A stretch of DNA of 64,000 nucleotides. Origin: Microcoleus vaginatus HSN003. GTDB taxonomy: Bacteria; Cyanobacteriota; Cyanobacteriia; Cyanobacteriales; Microcoleaceae. The stretch's first letter is position 1; every line of letters begins with the position of its first letter. Shown one piece after another: positions 1,690 through 42,515 of the stretch. The notes beneath the pieces were generated by a model. It did not search any database. It saw nothing but the letters and a program-made list of their open reading frames with translations, and was not told the DNA's origin. Both the position numbers and the translations under genes were made by a program. Where the stretch lies: assembly GCF_022701255.1 (NCBI RefSeq), contig NZ_CP031705.1:3968001-4032000 (forward strand), read 5' to 3'.

Positions 1690-4600
1690 CTATTGACCGA
1701 TAGCACAGAAAGCAGCCCAGTGGTAAGGCGATTGAAAAGGTTTAGCTTTAGCTTCCATCTTATTAAATAATGCAGGTAACTGTACAATTTTTTGTGTGGG
1801 ACTCAAGGTAAGTTTGCTTGTCCATAGCTGCAAATCTTCTTTAGTGGCATCCCGCAGCCAAACTTGAGCTGATTTAAGGGCAAGGGAGACACTTAACCCG
1901 GCTTTGAGAAGCTGATAAAATTTTATCATTAAAAATGAGGCTGACAAATCGCTGACGGCCCACAAAGTCGCTACTACACTAGAGCTACCAGCCGCCAGGA
2001 AACCGCTAGGTAAGCTGATATATTCGTCGCTGATGCTGTTAAATTCGCTGATGCCTGTTTCGCAGGCGGAGAGGACAACCAGGCGGCATTCTCGGAGGTC
2101 AAGGTCAAAGATATCTGCGAAGGTGAGGCATTTGGTGAGGTCGAGGGTGTTGCCATTTTGTAAGGGTAGATAGCGAGTGGGGTTTTCTTCAGGGGGAGGC
2201 GGGGGTAATTCGCAGTCGGCTAGCAGCAATGCTGATAGCAAAGGTTGATTAAAGTTAAAGTAGCCATGACAGCTAAAGTGGGCGCAGTGGGTGATGCGGA
2301 GACGGCTGTTATCTATGAATAATTTTTTGGCATCTCTTTGGATGAGGATATCTTTGAAGTCGAAATGCTGACTAATCACTTGTACTTCTAAGTCGCTACA
2401 GTTCAGGTCATTAGAGGGATTTTGGACGGCAAATAGGTGAGTGAAATTTGGGCGTTTTCGCCTTTGTGCCTGTTGCAGCAGTTGACAACTGGGGGAATAG
2501 CGGACACCTTGTTTGAAGCAATCTAGTAAGTAGGGATTGATGGGTTCAGGAGACTGAGTTTCTGGGTTAAATCGCTTCCAGGTTTCAGGGCTAACCGCCA
2601 AAGCGTGAAGGGGGAACAGGTGTAGGAAAATGTGGGGAATTAAAATTAGTCGATCGCAGTGTTTGGGTACTTTCCCCAGAATTTCATTGATATGCAATAT
2701 TTCAGATAAGCTTTGGAGGCGAGGGGCTAGGTTTTCCCGCCATTGCCATTGGGTTTGATCTTCTTCTTGGTAATCTCTCAGATATTCCTCGCCCCAATTT
2801 ACCAAGGCTTGAAAGTCGGCTTTTGAAGATTGCCATACTATAGGATTTGGTGATTGGGGGGTGATAATGAAAGTAAGGAATTTGTCGCCCAGGATGTACC
2901 ATTCAAGGATAGCGGTGTTTTCTGCAGTGAGGGCTTGAATATCGCTGTAGAAGATGCCTTTAACTTCTTGAGTCAGGAGGAAGTCGGGGTCAATGGGTTT
3001 GATGTCACGGACGACCAGCTCGTCGAGTTGTTGCCGCAATTGGGTGAGATGGGTTTGATCGCGGCTGGTAGTTTGTAGGGTGTCGATTTGGAGGCCGCGT
3101 TCTCCCGATATTGTGCCGCCGTTGCTGTTACGATTTGTCTGTTGGTTGTCTAGTCGGCGCTGTTCGGCATCAATTTCTTGACGCAGGCGCGAGAGTTCCT
3201 TGAGAACGGTTTGGGGAAGATCGCCTTTGGGGTATAACTCGCGGGTGGCAACGAGTTCCACTAAGTTTCGGGCTTTGCTGCGTTCGACGTATTCTATGGC
3301 TTCGGTGTAGTTTTTTAGCTTTAGGCAAACTTCCACCATATTTCGATAGAGTTGATTCCATTCTTCGGCTAATTTCTGCTTGGTTTCATCCCCAGATTGA
3401 ATCTCGCCCCGTAAAAATTCTACTGTTTCAATCGCTGCGGCATAGGTATCATAAGCGAGTTTCCATTGCTGGTTACTTCGGTAAAGATTACCTAAATTAA
3501 ACAAAGTTTCTGTATATTTTTGCGGGAAAGCCTCACGAGTAGCGTCACGAGTTCTGATAGTTAAAGCATTGTGGTAATAATTTTTCGCCAGTTCGATATT
3601 CTGAGCTTTCTCTCCCCTGATTCTGTGACGGTAGGCTTCTCCCAGATTATTTTGCGTGCCCGCCCAATATTCGGGAAAGGCATCACGGGTGAGGACGGTT
3701 AATGCAGCAGTGTAAGATGCGATCGCCAGTTCGATATTCTCTGCTTTCTCTCCCCTGATTCTGTCACTGTAGGCAACTCCCAGATTATTTTGCGTCTGGG
3801 CCCACTCTTCGGGAAAAGCCTCGCAGGTGTAGACGGATAATGCAGCAGTGTAAGATGCGATCGCCAGTTCGATATTCTCTGCTTTCTCTCCCCTGATTCT
3901 GTTACTGTAGGCAATTCCCAGATTATTTTGCGTCTGAGCGCAATCTTCGGGAAAGGCATCGCGGGTGCGGACGGATAATGCAGCAGTGTAAGATGCGATC
4001 GCCAGTTCGATATTCTCTGCTTTCTCTCCCCTGATTCTGTAACTGTAGGCAATTCCCAGATTATTTCGCGTCAGAGCCCATTTTTCGGGAAAGGCATCGG
4101 GGGTGAGGACGGTTAATGCAGCAGTGAAATATGCGATCGCCAGTTCGATATTCTGAGCTTTCTCTCCCCTGATTCTGTTACGGTAGGCAACTCCCAGATT
4201 ATTTTGCGTCGTTGCCAGATACTCGGAAAAAGCTTCGCGGGTGAGGACGGATAATGCAGCAGTGTAAGATGCGATCGCCAGTTCGATATTCTGAGCTTTC
4301 TCTCCCCTGACTCTTTCAGTGTAGGCAATTGCCAGATTATTTTGCGTCTGGGCCCATTTTTTGGGAAAGGCATCGCGGGTGTAGACGGTTAATGCAGCAG
4401 TGTAAGATGCGATCGCACTTTCGATATTCTGTGCTTTCTCTCCCCTGATTCTGTCACTGTAGGCAATTGCCAGATTATTTTGCGTTAGGGCCCATTTTTC
4501 GCTCCCGGGTTCCCGATTACTTAAAAGTATTTGATAACCGGTAATGGCAATTTCAAGATTATTCGCTCTCTCCCCCTGCGGAAAGTCACTAATATGACTA

Positions 4601-36904: not shown

Positions 36905-37594
36905 TTATCCAAACAACCGCTGCTGCCCGTTTGCCGCATCTTTGCCGGCATAAATCTCGCGAGTTCCCTTGGGAATATAAATCCAATCGAATTCTTGCAA
37001 GCGGTTTGTCAAATTGGAAATGCTCACTCCCAACTCATCTCTCATTTTGTATAAATGCGACCACTTTGTTAAATCGCGTCCCTGTCTTTTTTCCTCCAAA
37101 ATACACCGAGGCATCAACAAACAGCTTGCAAAATATTGCGCTTGCCATTCGATCGACAAAACCTTATTATCAGCACTCGCACCCCGGCAAACAAACGGTT
37201 CCTCGACATCAGACGCCGTTTTTCCTTCATTGCCCAAGTTTAATTCCAACTGTTCCACAGTGCCGTCTGCTTCGTCTTGATTGACGTGTAGCACCCAGTG
37301 TCCGATTTCGTGGGCGATCGTCGATTCGATGAAACCCGGCGGTTTTTCGAGAATCTGTTCGTTGATTTCGATTAACCGCTGCTGCGGCAAAATCCTCGCC
37401 GCGATCGCACCTTCTTCATCCGGCTCAATGCACTCCCAAACTACGCCCAAATCCAGAAAATCAGCAACCGTTGTCGCATCAAAAGGCCATCTCGGAGCAA
37501 AATTTTGCGTTTTCTGCATCTGCATCAAGATGTCATTTGCCAAACGCTCGATCGATTCTTTGGGATAGAAGCAATACGGCTTAAAAATACTCAC
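36905..37594 (-). CDS. ImmA/IrrE-family zinc metallopeptidase
   Basis: This is a 229-residue protein. The zinc motif HEIGH is at residues 95-99 in STIAHEIGHWVLHV, and a downstream acidic/Asn segment with YFASCLLMP continues the COG2856 fold. The start is GTG at 37594 with AGAGG upstream, 15 bases after the XRE gene stop. The XRE-ImmA order matches pairs in which the protease cleaves the repressor (ImmR/ImmA of ICEBs1, DdrO/IrrE of Deinococcus). By analogy it would inactivate the XRE protein when a signal appears. Confidence 0.9.
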   Translation of the reverse strand: MSIFKPYCFYPKESIERLANDILMQMQKTQNFAPRWPFDATTVADFLDLGVVWECIEPDEEGAIAARILPQQRLIEINEQILEKPPGFIESTIAHEIGHWVLHVNQDEADGTVEQLELNLGNEGKTASDVEEPFVCRGASADNKVLSIEWQAQYFASCLLMPRCILEEKRQGRDLTKWSHLYKMRDELGVSISNLTNRLQEFDWIYIPKGTREIYAGKDAANGQQRLFG

Positions 37595-37609: not shown

Positions 37610-37933
37610 TTACGCTTCAAAAGACTGTTTGAGCCAATCAGGATTTTCTTGCATTCGGCGGAAAAGAGCCTGCATTTCCTTCGGATTCTGCTTCAGCAGC
37701 GCTTCGTACTGTTGCGGCAGCCTCCCCGCCAAGAAAATCAATTCCTCTTCGTTTATGTCTAGATTCCGCGCTAATGCTCGGATTACCTCCTCTTTTGGCG
37801 CATAATCGGCTCGATCGTTTTCCAACTTCGACAAATAAGTAAAATCCACACTTAGCATAGCTGCTAGCTCACGTTGTGAGTAAGCTTTGTCCTTGCGAGC
37901 TTGACGGATCAGTCTTCCAAATGTTTGTTCCAC
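37610..37933 (-). CDS. XRE-family HTH repressor paired with ImmA protease
   Basis: This is a 107-residue protein. Residues 5-65 form an XRE/Cro-type HTH (FGRLIRQARKDKAYSQRELA, VDFTYLSKLENDRADY). The C-terminal tail (LPQQYEALLKQNPKEMQALF) is the kind of segment cleaved by ImmA partners. The start is GTG at 37933: a perfect AGGAGG (37943-37948) lies nine bases upstream, and the -10 box of its promoter (37956-37961) lies just beyond. Longer starts at 37957 or 38008 would place the start codon inside the promoter. Three palindromes upstream are its likely operators. Confidence 0.92.
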   Translation of the reverse strand: MEQTFGRLIRQARKDKAYSQRELAAMLSVDFTYLSKLENDRADYAPKEEVIRALARNLDINEEELIFLAGRLPQQYEALLKQNPKEMQALFRRMQENPDWLKQSFEA

Positions 37934-37955
37934 GGTTTTTCGCCTCCTGACAAGC

Positions 37956-37984
37956 ATTCTAGCCTGTTTTGATGAAAAGTTCAA
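37956..37984 (-). promoter_or_regulatory. Promoter of the XRE-ImmA operon
   Basis: On the minus strand the boxes are TTGAAC (37979-37984), a 17-base spacer and TAGAAT (37956-37961). Transcription would start close to the AGGAGG, giving a very short leader. The -35 box is the right half of operator site 1. Confidence 0.8.
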
Positions 37985-38045
37985 CAAAATACTTGACGGG
38001 AAAATCAACCCGCGCTACCATGAGGTTAGTTGACGGTTTAATCAA
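37969..38045. promoter_or_regulatory. Three TTGA-N8-TCAA operators
   Basis: Sites are 37969-37984, 37993-38008 and 38030-38045. Each is TTGA, eight bases, TCAA; sites 2 and 3 share TTGACGG. Site 1 covers the -35 region of the XRE promoter, site 2 the -35 of the forward cassette promoter, and site 3 the expected start of the forward transcript. The layout suggests one repressor controlling both directions. Confidence 0.78.
37993..38021 (+). promoter_or_regulatory. Forward promoter of the unknown cassette
   Basis: TTGACG (37993-37998), a 17-base spacer and TACCAT (38016-38021). The -35 box is embedded in operator site 2. The leader to the first gene at 38188 would be about 160 bases. Confidence 0.6.
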
Positions 38046-38187
38046 CCCCCAGAGCCTGACTGGTAGGGTTAAGGGTGCAAATTAGCCTAGCTCACACTCT
38101 ACATATAGAGTCGTCAACTTCAGAGGAGTGAGAAGCGCTGGGCGTCAAAACGCTTGTACGCAGCAAATAAGGAGGAGCAGATCGCAA

Positions 38188-38454
38188 ATGCTGAGAACCT
38201 GGACAGACACGCATTACAAGCTCGAAGACGATGACTGGCTATACATCGCCACCCACGAAGAACAAAGCTCAGCCTCACTGGTTTGTCCCGGCTACGCGCG
38301 GGATGGCGAAGGCTTCAGCATCCACTTCACCCCAGCGCACCTAGAAACATTAGAGCATTTGCTCGCCGCGCTGCGGATTATCAAAGCTCAACAAGAGGCG
38401 ATGCTTGAGTATACCTATCCTGAACCAAAAGCGACAACACATCTCATTAGGTAA
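38188..38454 (+). CDS. Cassette gene 1, small hypothetical protein
   Basis: This is an 88-residue protein starting MLRTWTDTHYKLEDDDWLYI. The start is set at ATG 38188 because AAGGAGGAG (38169-38177) lies ten bases upstream; a longer frame from 38128 lacks a site. The N-terminal half is mostly beta, the second half a helix (LETLEHLLAALRIIKAQQEA). I do not recognise the family. It is the first gene after the operator region and probably the first of five in the operon 38188-41871. Confidence 0.78.
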   Translation: MLRTWTDTHYKLEDDDWLYIATHEEQSSASLVCPGYARDGEGFSIHFTPAHLETLEHLLAALRIIKAQQEAMLEYTYPEPKATTHLIR

Positions 38455-38549
38455 TCGAAGTTCGGCTACGAGCAATGTACGAGATTTAACGGATTACCAA
38501 TTGCCAATTCCCCGTAAAGCAGCAATAAATAACTAAGGAAAAACGAACA

Positions 38550-39254
38550 ATGACTACTAAAACACAAGAAAGACCTACATTTTCAGTATTTGGTGCCAAA
38601 CCGAGCAATGCTTTGCTAGTACCAGAAATCCCGATCGCAGTGCGTAACAATTGCCAAAGTGGCCAATGGACGATCGGCGATACAGACTACGGTTCCAAGT
38701 GTTCCATGACAATCCTCAAATTTTCCAAATTCTTCGGTTCCCTCGGTCAAACTTCCCACACACTGTGGGGTCAACTGTGGTTTGTCGCAGAAACAGGCGA
38801 ACTGCCACAAGGAGTTGTCATGGTGACATACATCAAAAACCGCAGCTTGAACGATTTTAACCGTTTGGTAGCATCAGTTCAATCTCGCGGCGTAGAACCG
38901 GCGACCGGGATTTTTGTTCCCGAATTTGTCAAGCATTCCGGTCAGAAACCCGACGACAGCGGAATAGTAAAACCAATCAACTACTACAGCTTGAAATGGT
39001 CTTGGAACGAGCGGAAAGATTGGGCGGTTATCGACCAAGCCGCAGCAGTTTTGTCAGATTCTAGCAATCAATCGCGGATGATTGACTTAGAAGGAACAAA
39101 AGCTATGGTGTGTTTAGATAACCTGCCGGCGCAGCAAGTGGCTTGCTTGATGGCTGCTCACGCTGGCGGTGAAAGCGATGCTATTGCTTTGAATTCCAAC
39201 GGCGGTATGTCGCTACCGTCAGCGGAAGACAAATCTACTGCTGACTTGTTCTAA
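38550..39254 (+). CDS. Cassette gene 2, hypothetical protein with acidic C-terminal tip
   Basis: This is a 234-residue protein preceded by AAGGAAAA. The body is mixed alpha/beta with aromatic-rich strands (SKFFGSLGQTSHTLWGQLWF, VVMVTYIKN, YYSLKWSWNERKDW). The protein ends in a linker and EDKSTADLF, an acidic plus hydrophobic tip that recalls the protein-docking tail of single-stranded DNA-binding proteins. That resemblance is only suggestive. I do not know its function. A strong GC hairpin (39264-39287) follows, which may reduce read-through to the next gene and make this the most abundant product of the cassette. Confidence 0.82.
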   Translation: MTTKTQERPTFSVFGAKPSNALLVPEIPIAVRNNCQSGQWTIGDTDYGSKCSMTILKFSKFFGSLGQTSHTLWGQLWFVAETGELPQGVVMVTYIKNRSLNDFNRLVASVQSRGVEPATGIFVPEFVKHSGQKPDDSGIVKPINYYSLKWSWNERKDWAVIDQAAAVLSDSSNQSRMIDLEGTKAMVCLDNLPAQQVACLMAAHAGGESDAIALNSNGGMSLPSAEDKSTADLF

Positions 39255-39263
39255 TTTTGTTGT

Positions 39264-39287
39264 AAGGCGCGATTTAATCGCGCCTTT
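39264..39287 (+). terminator. Hairpin after cassette gene 2 (partial terminator)
   Basis: AGGCGCGAT-TTA-ATCGCGCCT forms a near-perfect GC-rich stem followed by only TTT. It could be a leaky terminator or an RNA-stabilising hairpin, since three same-strand genes follow closely. Confidence 0.6.
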
Positions 39288-39312
39288 ACCATAACTGTTA
39301 CAACAGAGTGAA

Positions 39313-39681
39313 ATGAAGAAATTAACAAACCTGAAAACCCAACCCAACCTGCAAGAAAGCCGTTTGAAAGAGAATCTTGAGCTGCTCGACCAAATTCGAG
39401 CCGACGCAGTTAACGACATCGAAAGTCTCACCGAAGACTTCCAGCACATGACTTTAGTTGCCGAATCTGTGCAGCGGAATTACCGAGCTTTGCTAGCCGA
39501 AAATCAACTGCTAAAAGGCACACTTTTAAGTATAATTGATGAGTGCGGCTGCGGGCAAGGAAATCGGTGCGATCGCTGCTGGAAACTTCTCAAAATTCTA
39601 GCCAGCGATAATCCAGAAGAAAAACCCGACGCAGCCAGAAAGTACCGAACCATTCTCAGCCAACTCCGCAACTTAGAATAA
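39313..39681 (+). CDS. Cassette gene 3, helical protein with Cys cluster
   Basis: This is a 122-residue protein. Residues about 1-75 are predicted helical or coiled coil (ESRLKENLELLDQIRADAVN). Near residue 78 comes CGCGQGNRCDRC, four cysteines spaced like a small zinc site (C-x-C-x5-C-x2-C). The C-terminal part is again helical. The arrangement suggests a small DNA- or protein-binding factor; no family is recognised. It lies between cassette gene 2 and the two coiled-coil genes on the same strand. Confidence 0.78.
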   Translation: MKKLTNLKTQPNLQESRLKENLELLDQIRADAVNDIESLTEDFQHMTLVAESVQRNYRALLAENQLLKGTLLSIIDECGCGQGNRCDRCWKLLKILASDNPEEKPDAARKYRTILSQLRNLE

Positions 39682-39737
39682 CTGAAAACGTCTCACTAAA
39701 AAGTCTCGCCAAGTTATAATCAGGAGAAGCAAGCATT

Positions 39738-40715
39738 ATGACAATAGCAACTGGCAAGGATAGCAAAGTCAAAATTTTGCAAAACTTTCAGCAGATTTTA
39801 GCCGACAAGAAAAAGATCGAATCCAAAGTAGAAACCAAAGAAGAGTCAGCCGAAAAAGCCAAAAACAAACAACTCCTCGAAGTCGCTTCCACCTACACAA
39901 TTGACAGCATCGTCAAAGGCTTGGCTGACTTGCAATTAGATTTCGGCAGCATCATCAGCGGACTTTCCGAAAAACTGAAAGCGGAATCTTCCAAATTAGA
40001 CGAATTAAAACGCGCGATCGAAATAGAAGCCCAACAATTGCAAGAGTTGCAGCAAATCAGAGTTGTAGCAGACGCCCTCCACATTTTAACTCAAGAGCAC
40101 CGAGAAAAATTGACCCTGCTGGAACAAAACGCTGCTAACCAACGCGAAATTCTCGAAAAAGACACGACCCAAAAACGCAAGGTTTGGGAAAAAGAACAGC
40201 AAGAATTTGAGGCTGCAGTTCAAGAAGAGGCTGCACACATAACTAAAAAGCGCCAGGAAGAAACAGCAGATTATCAATACGAATTACAGCGCACTCGCAA
40301 AATCGAAACCGACGAATACGAAGAAACGAAGCGTAAACTAGAACGGGATTTGCAAGAATCTACCCGCGAAAAAGAAAAAAATTGGGTGGAACGGGAAAAA
40401 GTCCTCAGCGACAATCAAGCGGAGTTTGAAGAGAATCAAAGAAAAGCCGCCGGATTTGAAGAAGAACTCAAACAGGCTTATGTTAAAGCCAAAGAAGAAG
40501 CAATTCAAGAAGTTTCCCGCGAAGCTAAAGTCAAGGCAGATTTAGTGGAGAAAGAGTGGGAAGGAAGCAAGCAAGGATATGAATTGAAAGTCCAATCTTT
40601 ACAGCAGACAATTGGGCGACAAACCGAACAAATCGCCGAAATTTCCGCGCAACTGCAAGCCACGATGAAGCAAGCGCAAGATTTGGCAATGAAAGCTTTT
40701 GCCAGCAAAGCTTAA
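39738..40715 (+). CDS. Cassette gene 4, long coiled-coil protein
   Basis: This is a 325-residue protein, highly charged. After a basic N-terminal 45 residues comes a conserved-looking helix (SIVKGLADLQLDFGSIISGL) and then about 220 residues of coiled coil rich in Glu, Lys and Gln. The C-terminal 40 residues (QLQATMKQAQDLAMKAF) match the end of the next gene's product. There is no signal peptide, membrane helix or enzyme motif. It is a paralogue of the gene at 40792. A structural or scaffolding role is likely; the nature of the assembly is unknown. Confidence 0.82.
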   Translation: MTIATGKDSKVKILQNFQQILADKKKIESKVETKEESAEKAKNKQLLEVASTYTIDSIVKGLADLQLDFGSIISGLSEKLKAESSKLDELKRAIEIEAQQLQELQQIRVVADALHILTQEHREKLTLLEQNAANQREILEKDTTQKRKVWEKEQQEFEAAVQEEAAHITKKRQEETADYQYELQRTRKIETDEYEETKRKLERDLQESTREKEKNWVEREKVLSDNQAEFEENQRKAAGFEEELKQAYVKAKEEAIQEVSREAKVKADLVEKEWEGSKQGYELKVQSLQQTIGRQTEQIAEISAQLQATMKQAQDLAMKAFASKA

Positions 40716-40721
40716 AACCCA

Positions 40722-40746
40722 GTAAGGTGTGCAATACACACCTTAC
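40722..40746. terminator. Hairpin between the two coiled-coil genes
   Basis: GTAAGGTGTG and CACACCTTAC enclose CAATA, followed by an A-rich stretch. A related hairpin with arms GTAAGGTGC and GCACCTTAC lies after the last cassette gene (41981-42006). There is no U-run, so it may be a dispersed palindrome or an mRNA stabiliser rather than a terminator. Confidence 0.5.
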
Positions 40747-40791
40747 GAAAAAATGACAGAAATTTTCCCCGCTATTAAGAAATGAAAAGTC

Positions 40792-41871
40792 ATGAACAAA
40801 AAAGTTAGCGACAAAAGCACCAAGGCTGAAATCTTAGAAGCGTACAAGGAAGCAGCGCAAGAAAAAGCGCAGTTAGAAGCGCAAATCCAACTGTTAAACG
40901 CTTCCCAAAAGCAAACAGCCGTCCCCGAGAAACCTATTGTGGAGGCAAAGAAACCCCTGCCATTAACTCAAAATCCACAAAAAATGCAGTCCACAATTGA
41001 TAATTTGATTTTGCTGCAATTTAGCTTTGGTGGCGCTGTCAGCGAGTTGTCGGAAAAATTAACTTCAGAAGCTGCTAAAGTCGAAGAATTGCGGCGCACT
41101 GTGGGCGAGGAAATTCAACAACTGCAAGAGTTGCACAGTTTAGAAGATGTTGCAGAAGATACACTGGACACTTTAATTCAACAGTACGAAGAAAGCGCCA
41201 AAACTTTTGCTGGCGAACTCAGCGAACAGCGCGAAACTGTTGAACAGGAATTGTTGGAACGCCGGCAAGCTTGGGAAAAAGAGCAGGAACTCCAAAAGTT
41301 GGCCGTTAAAGAACGCAATGAGAATCACCAAAAAGCTCGTGAGCGGGATGAAGAGTTGTATGATTATGATTTGAATCTTCAGCGAAATCTGGACATCGAA
41401 GAATACGAACAGCGCCAGAAAAGGCTGTATCAAGAAATCGAAGAGTTTCAGCAAGAACAGGAGAAACAGTGGGCGGAATGTGAAAAATCTCTTTCGGAAC
41501 GAGAAAAAGTTTATGCTGAGGTTAAAGCTAAGGTAGAAGCTTTCCCGAAAGAACTCGAAGCTAATATCAAGAACGGGAAAGATAACGGCCGCAATATTGG
41601 CAATTATCAAGCTAAAGTTAAGGCTGATTTGTCTGCTAAAGATCTCGAAGGGCAAAAGCAAAACTATGAACTGCAAATTCAAGGGATGCTGCAGACAATT
41701 CAAAATCAAGATGCGCGCCTTGCTAGCTTGTCGAAACAACTGGATTCTGCTTTGAAACAGGTTCAAGATTTGGCGGTGAAGGCAATTGAAGGTGCATCGA
41801 ATTTGAGTTCTTTGCAAGCAGTCAGGGAAATTGCGATCGAACAAGCGAAGACTCAGCAAAAAAATAAGTAG
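40792..41871 (+). CDS. Cassette gene 5, long coiled-coil protein, paralogue of gene 4
   Basis: This is a 359-residue protein. It shares with gene 4 the early helix (STIDNLILLQFSFGGAVSEL), the SEKLxxEaaKxeELrr and QQLQEL blocks, the YDYDLNLQRNLDIEEYE-type middle and the KQVQDLAVKAIEG end. The N-terminus (KVSDKSTKAEILEAYKEAAQ) and the last 30 residues are specific to it. It is almost entirely coiled coil. The tandem paralogy suggests that the two products form a hetero-assembly. It is the last gene before a repeat-rich gap, so the cassette probably ends here. Confidence 0.82.
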   Translation: MNKKVSDKSTKAEILEAYKEAAQEKAQLEAQIQLLNASQKQTAVPEKPIVEAKKPLPLTQNPQKMQSTIDNLILLQFSFGGAVSELSEKLTSEAAKVEELRRTVGEEIQQLQELHSLEDVAEDTLDTLIQQYEESAKTFAGELSEQRETVEQELLERRQAWEKEQELQKLAVKERNENHQKARERDEELYDYDLNLQRNLDIEEYEQRQKRLYQEIEEFQQEQEKQWAECEKSLSEREKVYAEVKAKVEAFPKELEANIKNGKDNGRNIGNYQAKVKADLSAKDLEGQKQNYELQIQGMLQTIQNQDARLASLSKQLDSALKQVQDLAVKAIEGASNLSSLQAVREIAIEQAKTQQKNK

Positions 41872-42233: not shown

Positions 42234-42515
42234 ATGCAGAAACAAATCATACGCCAAAAAGATACTAATGCTTGGATACTTCAGTGCTGGGTTTCTTTTA
42301 TTCTTGCCATTTCCGCAACTACTGTAGGTATCATTTATTTACAGGTAGACCCCTGGCAGAAAGCTTTTATGGGTATGGGTTTAACTTTTTCAATCGGCTC
42401 GTCTTTTACTTTAGCAAAAACCATTCGCGATAACAACGAGGCAACAACATTAACTGCCAGAATCGACGAAGCTAGAGTTGAGAAAATTCTCGCTGAGCAC
42501 CATCCTCTCAAATAA
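42234..42515 (+). CDS. YiaA/YiaB two-helix family membrane protein
   Basis: This is a 93-residue protein. Two hydrophobic helices are separated by the short polar YLQVDPWQKAF turn, and the second helix ends in GSSFTLAKTIRDNNEA, the pattern of the YiaA/B two-helix domain. The C-terminal 25 residues are soluble and helical. Function of the family is unknown. A strong bidirectional terminator follows 22 bases after the stop. Confidence 0.85.
   Translation: MQKQIIRQKDTNAWILQCWVSFILAISATTVGIIYLQVDPWQKAFMGMGLTFSIGSSFTLAKTIRDNNEATTLTARIDEARVEKILAEHHPLK

What the first reader, a model, noticed from the sequence alone, without database searches (positions are those of the whole stretch)
37610..41871. 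Protease-switched cassette of unknown function: XRE-ImmA facing five uncharacterised genes
Seen directly: an XRE repressor and an HEIGH metalloprotease in one operon, three TTGA-N8-TCAA palindromes (37969, 37993, 38030), a strong minus promoter whose -35 is half of site 1, a forward promoter whose -35 lies in site 2, and five same-strand genes (38188-41871) with no recognised function. Known: ImmR/ImmA and DdrO/IrrE pairs release repression when the protease cleaves the repressor. Inferred: the cassette is silent until a stress or invasion signal activates the protease. The products (an SSB-tail-like protein, a four-Cys helical protein, two paralogous long coiled coils) could form a DNA-protecting, filament-forming or anti-phage assembly.
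Basis: partly seen in the sequence, partly recalled or inferred. Interest (0 to 1): 0.85.

Follow-up and report, generated by a model that had tools for sequence, protein, structure and literature searches.

The report
Cyanobacterial radiation-response operon and its switch
A repressor-plus-protease pair in filamentous cyanobacteria faces five genes laid out like a cluster known to be strongly switched on by gamma rays in spirulina, and two of the five proteins are predicted to have the shape of single-stranded-DNA binders, which suggests a DNA-damage response that works without the usual SOS switch.

Summary
In detail: XRE and ImmA genes face five same-strand genes (A-E), with three TTGA-N8-TCAA sites where stated. 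Of 58 named loci with gene B, 48 have XRE, ImmA and A beside it; 5 end at contig ends, 5 are lone B copies. The palindrome occurs 179 times in 57 of 57 distinct XRE-A intergenic regions, 0.47 expected. The layout matches arhR/arhABCDE of Limnospira PCC 8005, induced 8- to 30-fold by gamma rays; PCC 8005 itself was not compared. The protease's best PADLOC match is CapP, reported to be ssDNA-activated; CapH is the repressor's second. A and B resemble PUR/PC4 and gp32/OB folds at moderate scores. XRE facing D-E without A-C occurs in many families; 5 of 20 such loci read lack ImmA. Some relatives carry the operator upstream of dprA. Best reading: an operon for handling damaged, single-stranded DNA, released by proteolysis of its repressor. 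Cleavage, ssDNA sensing and ssDNA binding are inferred, not shown.

The parts
36905..37594 (-). ImmA/CapP/IrrE-type metalloprotease (HEIGHW), second gene after xre
   Evidence: PF06114 1.2e-9; PADLOC capP 4.6e-16; HEIGH, Cys135 and Cys157 invariant in 8 of 8 aligned
37610..37933 (-). XRE repressor, counterpart of arhR; likely start GTG 37933 with GGAGG upstream (my reading; the ORF listing gives TTG 38008)
   Evidence: HTH_3 7.3e-12; PADLOC HTH_VI 9.6e-12, capH 2.7e-9; 16 aligned rows
37969..37984 (.). operator 1 TTGATGAAAAGTTCAA; overlaps -35 of the minus promoter-like site
   Evidence: footprint
37993..38008 (.). operator 2 TTGACGGGAAAATCAA; contains -35 of the plus promoter-like site
   Evidence: footprint
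38030..38045 (.). operator 3 TTGACGGTTTAATCAA, downstream of the plus -10
   Evidence: footprint
37956..37984 (-). promoter-like site for xre-immA (TTGAAC-17-TAGAAT)
   Evidence: consensus match only
37993..38021 (+). promoter-like site for A-E (TTGACG-17-TACCAT)
   Evidence: consensus match only
38188..38454 (+). gene A (88 aa, arhA counterpart): predicted beta4-alpha, PUR-alpha/PC4-like
38550..39254 (+). gene B (234 aa, arhB counterpart): predicted mostly beta, gp32/OB-like; relatives on viral contigs, plasmids and in prophage- or plasmid-like loci
39313..39681 (+). gene C (122 aa, arhC counterpart): CxC-x5-CxxC, possible zinc knuckle
39738..40715 (+). gene D (325 aa, arhD counterpart): long coiled coil (by eye from sequence), paralogue of E
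40792..41871 (+). gene E (359 aa, arhE counterpart): long coiled coil (by eye); distant relative gp268 of Bacillus phage G

Best explanation
This is the Microcoleus copy of the arh radiation-response cluster. In unstressed cells the XRE protein (ArhR) sits on three TTGA-N8-TCAA operators and shuts both its own promoter and the A-E promoter. Damage exposes single-stranded DNA, which activates the neighbouring ImmA/CapP-like protease; it cuts ArhR, the operators are freed and A-E are made. A (PUR/PC4-like) and B (gp32-like) coat or anneal ssDNA, C is a small zinc-knuckle partner, and the D-E coiled-coil pair forms a scaffold or tether on damaged DNA. In an Okeania-like group the same operator also sits upstream of dprA, whose product loads RecA on ssDNA (recalled). 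Shown by computation: gene content, conservation of the operators, spread. Known from papers: gamma induction of the cluster with this layout in Limnospira. Inferred: that it is the same cluster, the cleavage, the ssDNA signal and the molecular roles of A-E.
For: 48 of 58 named loci with B have XRE, ImmA and A beside it. 179 operators in 57 of 57 regions against 0.47. XRE within 5.5 kb of E in at least 50 of 127 E-bearing genomes of 195 searched, 12 family labels. Of 20 XRE//D-E loci read 18 have intergenic operators; of 9 D-E loci with no XRE in the stretch and none elsewhere paired by me, 0 have one within 600 bases upstream; 2 of 2 D-E loci on contigs apart from XRE keep a pair. Limnospira-like G201 has ImmA-XRE facing A-E in order (recognised by eye), as PCC 8005 arhR/arhA-E, induced 8-30 fold; product of the second gene up 7.1- and 4.3-fold. 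PADLOC capP 4.6e-16 and capH 2.7e-9; CapP and PprI are reported ssDNA-activated. Folds of A and B. dprA upstream regions: 16 sites in 10 of 19 loci resampled against 0.34.
Confidence: 0.6

Rival explanations
1. It is an anti-phage defence operon whose CapH/CapP-type switch turns it on when phage replication exposes ssDNA; A-E form an assembly that acts on phage DNA, and gamma induction is a side effect.
For: The protease matches CapP best and the repressor matches CapH second in PADLOC; such DNA-damage switches sit beside immune operons (passages); B exchanges with viral contigs.
Against: A-E have no PADLOC, Pfam or NCBIfam match above the limits used, so no nuclease, NTPase or toxin domain was recognised; A-E order is kept across families f1 and f8 and XRE//D-E across 12 family labels; the dprA operator points to repair.
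Confidence: 0.2
2. D and E build a cytoskeletal or envelope filament that is stress-regulated; DNA handling is incidental and A-C are modulators.
For: D-E are the most widespread part (E in 127 of 195 genomes), and coiled-coil-rich proteins form filaments in cyanobacteria (PMC7002697, abstract start and passages).
Against: The partners A and B have ssDNA-binding-like predicted folds, and of ten neighbours of B relatives given to Pfam, ArdA, a PD-(D/E)XK nuclease and Gp157 were recognised.
Confidence: 0.12
3. The cassette is a domesticated phage recombination module under a prophage-type ImmR/ImmA switch.
For: Many B relatives lie in phage-, plasmid- or prophage-like settings; E has a distant relative in Bacillus phage G.
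Against: No integrase or phage structural gene was recognised among the neighbours examined (by eye, not a systematic search); in the B tree the close viral copies nest among cassette copies (0.98 support), so recent transfer looks host to phage; XRE//D-E without B is spread over 12 family labels.
Confidence: 0.1

Closest known systems
arhR / arhABCDE of Limnospira (Arthrospira) PCC 8005
   Same: Divergent XRE gene and five co-directional genes of unknown function, SMC-like similarity in the fourth and fifth; same order in Limnospira-like G201.
   Different: Passages read name no protease partner of arhR, operator or fold; PMC4550399 mentions the Deinococcus metalloprotease only as background. 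PCC 8005 sequence not compared; the PstS-like 10472 has no counterpart seen here.
CapH/CapP (repressor and ssDNA-activated protease beside immune operons)
   Same: Small HTH repressor plus HEXXH protease beside the operon; capP is the protease's best and capH the repressor's second PADLOC match; weak PDB profile match to CapP 7t5t, E 0.0056.
   Different: No known immune gene among A-E; the capP match covers residues 31-200 of 228.
DdrO/IrrE (PprI) of Deinococcus
   Same: LexA-independent derepression of damage genes by a metalloprotease (passages).
   Different: The protease ends 30 residues after the M78 match, leaving no room for the GAF-like domain that PprI needs for ssDNA activation; DdrO is only a marginal profile match (E 0.17-0.7).
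NsrX/Alr1977 of Anabaena PCC 7120
   Same: XRE regulator followed by an IrrE-domain protease in a cyanobacterium (passages).
   Different: Studied as a nitrogen regulator; orthology not tested here.
T4/RB69 gp32 single-stranded DNA-binding protein
   Different: 8 and 12% identity, no sequence-level match to any solved structure.

Membership tests
XRE repressor plus ImmA/CapP-type protease switch | XRE/HTH repressor gene | tested here: met
   HTH_3 7.3e-12
XRE repressor plus ImmA/CapP-type protease switch | Adjacent co-directional M78 HEXXH protease | tested here: met
   PF06114 1.2e-9; HEIGH invariant 8 of 8; in relatives 48 of 58 B loci but 15 of 20 core loci
XRE repressor plus ImmA/CapP-type protease switch | Conserved palindromes at its own and the cargo promoter | tested here: met
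   57 of 57 regions; binding itself untested
XRE repressor plus ImmA/CapP-type protease switch | Protease inactivates the repressor on a signal | not testable with these tools
   needs biochemistry
CapH/CapP | Profile similarity to CapH and CapP | tested here: met
   capP 4.6e-16 (best), capH 2.7e-9 (second to HTH_VI 9.6e-12)
CapH/CapP | Regulates a known immune operon | tested here: not met
   A-E no PADLOC hit at E 0.01
Deinococcus DdrO/IrrE | GAF-like C-terminal domain on the protease | tested here: not met
   228 aa, M78 match ends at residue 198; domain described in PMC10904395
arh cluster | XRE gene divergent from five co-directional genes, coiled coils at 4 and 5 | tested here: met
   window and Limnospira-like G201 against papers
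arh cluster | Sequence homology with ARTHROv5_10466-10471 | not tested
   PCC 8005 record not reached; G201 is unnamed
SSB / gp32 (gene B) | OB-type ssDNA-binding fold | tested here: inconclusive
SSB / gp32 (gene B) | Conserved acidic C-terminal tip ending in F | tested here: not met
   TADLF in 4 of 32 rows, four rows cut short
PUR-alpha / PC4 (gene A) | beta4-alpha ssDNA-binding fold | tested here: inconclusive
SMC (genes D, E) | ATPase head domains | tested here: not met
   no Pfam hit at E 0.1

The most novel reading that the evidence does not exclude
Cyanobacteria of this order have their own LexA-independent DNA-damage regulon, read by an ssDNA-sensing CapP-like protease, whose core output is a pair of coiled-coil proteins that build a scaffold on broken DNA, later joined by two new families of ssDNA-binding proteins, one of which is traded with phages, and in one branch by dprA.
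Probability: 0.4. Interest if true: 0.88.

Novelty: new variant of a known kind. Interest (0 to 1): 0.77.

Why it matters
Limnospira PCC 8005 is reported to survive at least 6400 Gy, to lack LexA and not to induce recA (abstract and passages), so how it senses damage has been open. A protease-released switch with a fixed operator makes that question directly testable, and gives candidate functions to the most strongly radiation-induced genes of unknown function in that organism. If A, B and D-E act on DNA they would be new classes of repair or protection proteins shared by many bloom- and mat-forming cyanobacteria.

Tried and rejected
The SSB-like tail of gene B was tested and dropped (4 of 32 rows). 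D-E as SMC proteins was dropped (no Pfam hit). A prophage remnant was considered and judged less likely. PDB sequence searches for B and for the single protease found nothing. B has no match in 50,697 phage records. Viral-contig scans with the D-E alignment and with one distant B group found no relative. A regulon beyond dprA was sought: in the window's genome two further double sites occur, one before a ShosT/ShosA-like pair and one inside a coding gene, but the reversed control pattern also gives one hit, so I claim neither; the strict motif gives 3 hits in the own genome (the cassette) and 3 control hits; single-site scans of two Okeania-like genomes gave 21 matches with 17 control hits and 21 with 23. 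One search lists only part of its matches, so other shared pairs may have been missed. The palindrome inside gene D (39901) recurs at about the same codons in relatives and is probably set by the protein sequence. The 'arhR' listing for PMC10985164 was a misspelt Arthrospira. Lau et al. 2022 on CapP was not held; its content is taken from citing papers. That the protease and operator are not described for arh rests on passage searches of PMC8400943, PMC4550399 and PMC4398503 and on paper searches, not on whole texts or supplements.
Full report
What is there. The window lies at 3,968,001-4,032,000 of a 6.76 Mb single-contig cyanobacterial genome; the nearest named relatives are Microcoleus. On the minus strand xre (37610-37933, my start) and immA (36905-37594) are 15 bases apart; on the plus strand five genes follow, A 38188-38454, B 38550-39254, C 39313-39681, D 39738-40715, E 40792-41871. 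Between them are three TTGA-N8-TCAA sites at 37969, 37993 and 38030. Site 1 overlaps the -35 of the minus promoter-like site, site 2 contains the -35 of the plus one and site 3 follows the plus -10. This is the layout of a repressor that shuts both directions.

More than chance. The palindrome class is not rare in the window (5 found, 2.39 expected). But in 66 orthologous loci, collapsing to 57 distinct intergenic sequences, 179 sites occur, at least one in 57 of 57, while first-order Markov resampling of the same regions gives 0.47 on average and 3 at most in 200 rounds. Many keep spacings of about 24 and 37 bases; the Planktothrix-type ones do not. The middle eight bases vary while the arms were fixed by the search. 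A stricter motif built from the window's own three sites hits only those three in the whole genome, against 3 hits of the reversed control.

Conservation. A search of named genomes with gene B gave 58 loci, among them Microcoleus, Tychonema, Kamptonema, Planktothrix, Okeania, Lyngbya, Arthrospira, Laspinema, Oscillatoria, Planktothricoides, Hydrocoleum and Trichodesmium. 48 of 58 have XRE, ImmA and A next to B; C is found in 42, D in 38 and E in 38 of those 48; of the other 10, five are cut by a contig end (L079, L089, L091, L098, L106) and five are lone B copies (L100, L112, L121, L122, L130; L112 also starts at a contig end but has no C-E downstream). In three loci of family f20 (L046-L048) XRE, ImmA, A and B (and C in two) are present but D-E are not nearby. 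In 195 genomes of the order B is in 40, E in 127 and the XRE in 108. In at least 50 genomes XRE lies within 5.5 kb of the best E match (56 same-contig pairs typed from the two lists; the rest judged by eye as on other contigs or without an XRE match); these 50 span 12 family labels and 29 of the 50 have no B match. So XRE facing D-E looks like the older core and A-C like an addition in part of the order.

Operator and regulon logic. I read 40 further stretches (recounted). Of 20 XRE//D-E core loci 18 have palindromes between XRE and D; the misses are L280 and L285. Fifteen of the 20 have ImmA; L277, L278, L281, L283 and L284 have no ImmA match and no HE[ILVAFM][GA]H frame in the stretch, and in L281 a TauE gene follows XRE instead. 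Of 11 D-E loci with no XRE in the stretch, 9 have no palindrome within 600 bases upstream of D, and 2 (L295, L305) have a pair; in those two genomes XRE sits on another contig with its own palindromes (L296, L298). Three further XRE loci (L302-L304) keep three palindromes but not A-E. The operator thus goes with regulation, not with position. A search for paired sites in the own genome and 39 relatives (the second listing is capped) turned up a shared pair between dprA and a divergent VWA-type gene in Okeania-like genomes (dprA 6e-80; VWA_4 3.5e-6). I call genus g99 Okeania-like because the cassette sites of G212 and G199 equal those of named Okeania loci L110 and L109. dprA was found in 37 of 40 genomes and 30 loci were fetched; 29 could be examined over (L195 in neither). 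Ten have sites within 450 bases, in genera g99 (5), g4 (3 of 6 examined), g97 and g100; 19, including the window's own, have none. In the 19 loci there are 16 sites against 0.34 expected. These genomes are relatives and dprA was picked because of the sites, so this is suggestive rather than a clean test.

What it corresponds to in print. Limnospira (Arthrospira) PCC 8005 has five co-directional genes ARTHROv5_10467-10471, renamed arhA-E, and a divergent XRE gene, arhR, immediately before arhA; they were induced 8- to 30-fold by gamma rays and have no known function (PMC8400943, passages). Earlier work found them highly expressed throughout recovery, not differentially induced by nitrogen deprivation or light/dark change, with SMC-like similarity in two (PMC4550399, passages), and the product of the second gene raised 7.1- and 4.3-fold; one of the five was not significant at 3200 Gy at RNA level, and a PstS-like gene, 10472, was then counted in the set (PMC4398503, table passage). 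The same papers report no LexA and no recA induction. A Limnospira-like genome, G201, has ImmA-XRE facing A-E in this order with three operators (recognised by eye), and named Arthrospira PCC 9108 has the same genes with an inserted TnpB-like frame between XRE and A. The gene after E in PCC 9108 is on the other strand and has no Pfam hit, so I see no counterpart of 10472. I could not reach the PCC 8005 sequence; the identification rests on order, number, orientation and annotation.

The switch. In PADLOC the protease matches capP best (4.6e-16); the repressor matches HTH_VI (9.6e-12) and then capH (2.7e-9). Among solved structures the repressor profile finds an immunity repressor, 8bny (4.1e-7), and SinR, with DdrO marginal (E 0.17-0.7); the protease profile finds only CapP 7t5t (E 0.0056). 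CapP is reported to be activated by ssDNA and to cut CapH (PMC13373217 and PMC10904395, passages); Deinococcus PprI is likewise ssDNA-activated, through a GAF-like domain for which this protease has no room (M78 match to residue 198 of 228). Cys135 and Cys157 are invariant in 8 aligned rows; a regulatory role is only a guess. These make ssDNA the most likely signal, but it is inferred. NsrX/Alr1977 shows that such pairs in cyanobacteria can be tied to nitrogen instead (PMC12584617, passages).

Descent. In a FastTree of 39 B proteins the cassette copies largely group by host, viral copies fall with the Microcoleus group (0.98 support for eight sequences, three of them cassette) and stand-alone Laspinema-type copies with a cassette copy of the same type (0.98) (midpoint rooted, many other nodes weak). 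So B has moved between hosts and mobile elements more than once; a protein useful to both sides fits a general DNA-handling role.

How it works, with confidence. Repression through the palindromes: very likely (0.9). Protease-mediated release: likely (0.75, lowered after seeing 5 of 20 core loci without it). DNA damage as the natural trigger: likely (0.75). ssDNA as the direct signal: 0.55. B binds ssDNA: 0.6; A binds ssDNA: 0.45; D-E scaffold on DNA: 0.4. The account as written, as the best single one: 0.6.

Novelty. The arh cluster and its radiation induction are known; XRE-protease switches are known, also in a cyanobacterium. New here, as far as the named searches go, are the protease partner of arhR, the operator, the widespread XRE//D-E core, the dprA target and the predicted ssDNA-binding folds. 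Hence a new variant of a known kind.

Noticed in passing
L098:217-2643, L102:7574-10000, L123:5068-7495, L131:2047-4466: Gene B is split after about codon 40 by a 2.42 kb insert with a reverse-transcriptase-like ORF at the same place in four genomes; Rfam calls L098 2568-2644 a group II intron (only L098 was searched in Rfam).
   Followed up: partly
L173:4413-4455 (G000:C1:1995912-1995954): A further paired TTGA-N8-TCAA site in the window's genome lies upstream of a ShosT/ShosA (PsyrTA)-like gene pair; not above the control count.
   Followed up: partly
L105:8309-9441: In Arthrospira PCC 9108 a TnpB-like gene, in two frames, sits between xre and gene A (recognised by eye, no family search).
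   Followed up: no
L302, L303, L304: Three genomes (genera g4 and g3) keep XRE, a full or decayed ImmA and three operators, but A-E are not beside them.
   Followed up: partly
39901-39916: A TTGA-N8-TCAA inside gene D recurs at about the same codons in many relatives, probably because of the protein sequence.
   Followed up: no
42234-42515: A YiaA/B two-helix gene follows the cassette in Microcoleus-type loci and also in several Okeania loci.
   Followed up: no
L044:2068-4369: Two B-family genes flank an ArdA-like antirestriction gene in one contig.
   Followed up: no
L047:11825-14011: In family f20 loci a CBS-domain histidine-kinase-like gene follows B-C where D-E stand elsewhere.
   Followed up: partly
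36905-37594: Cys135 and Cys157 of the protease are invariant in 8 of 8 aligned relatives; possible redox or zinc switch, untested.
   Followed up: no
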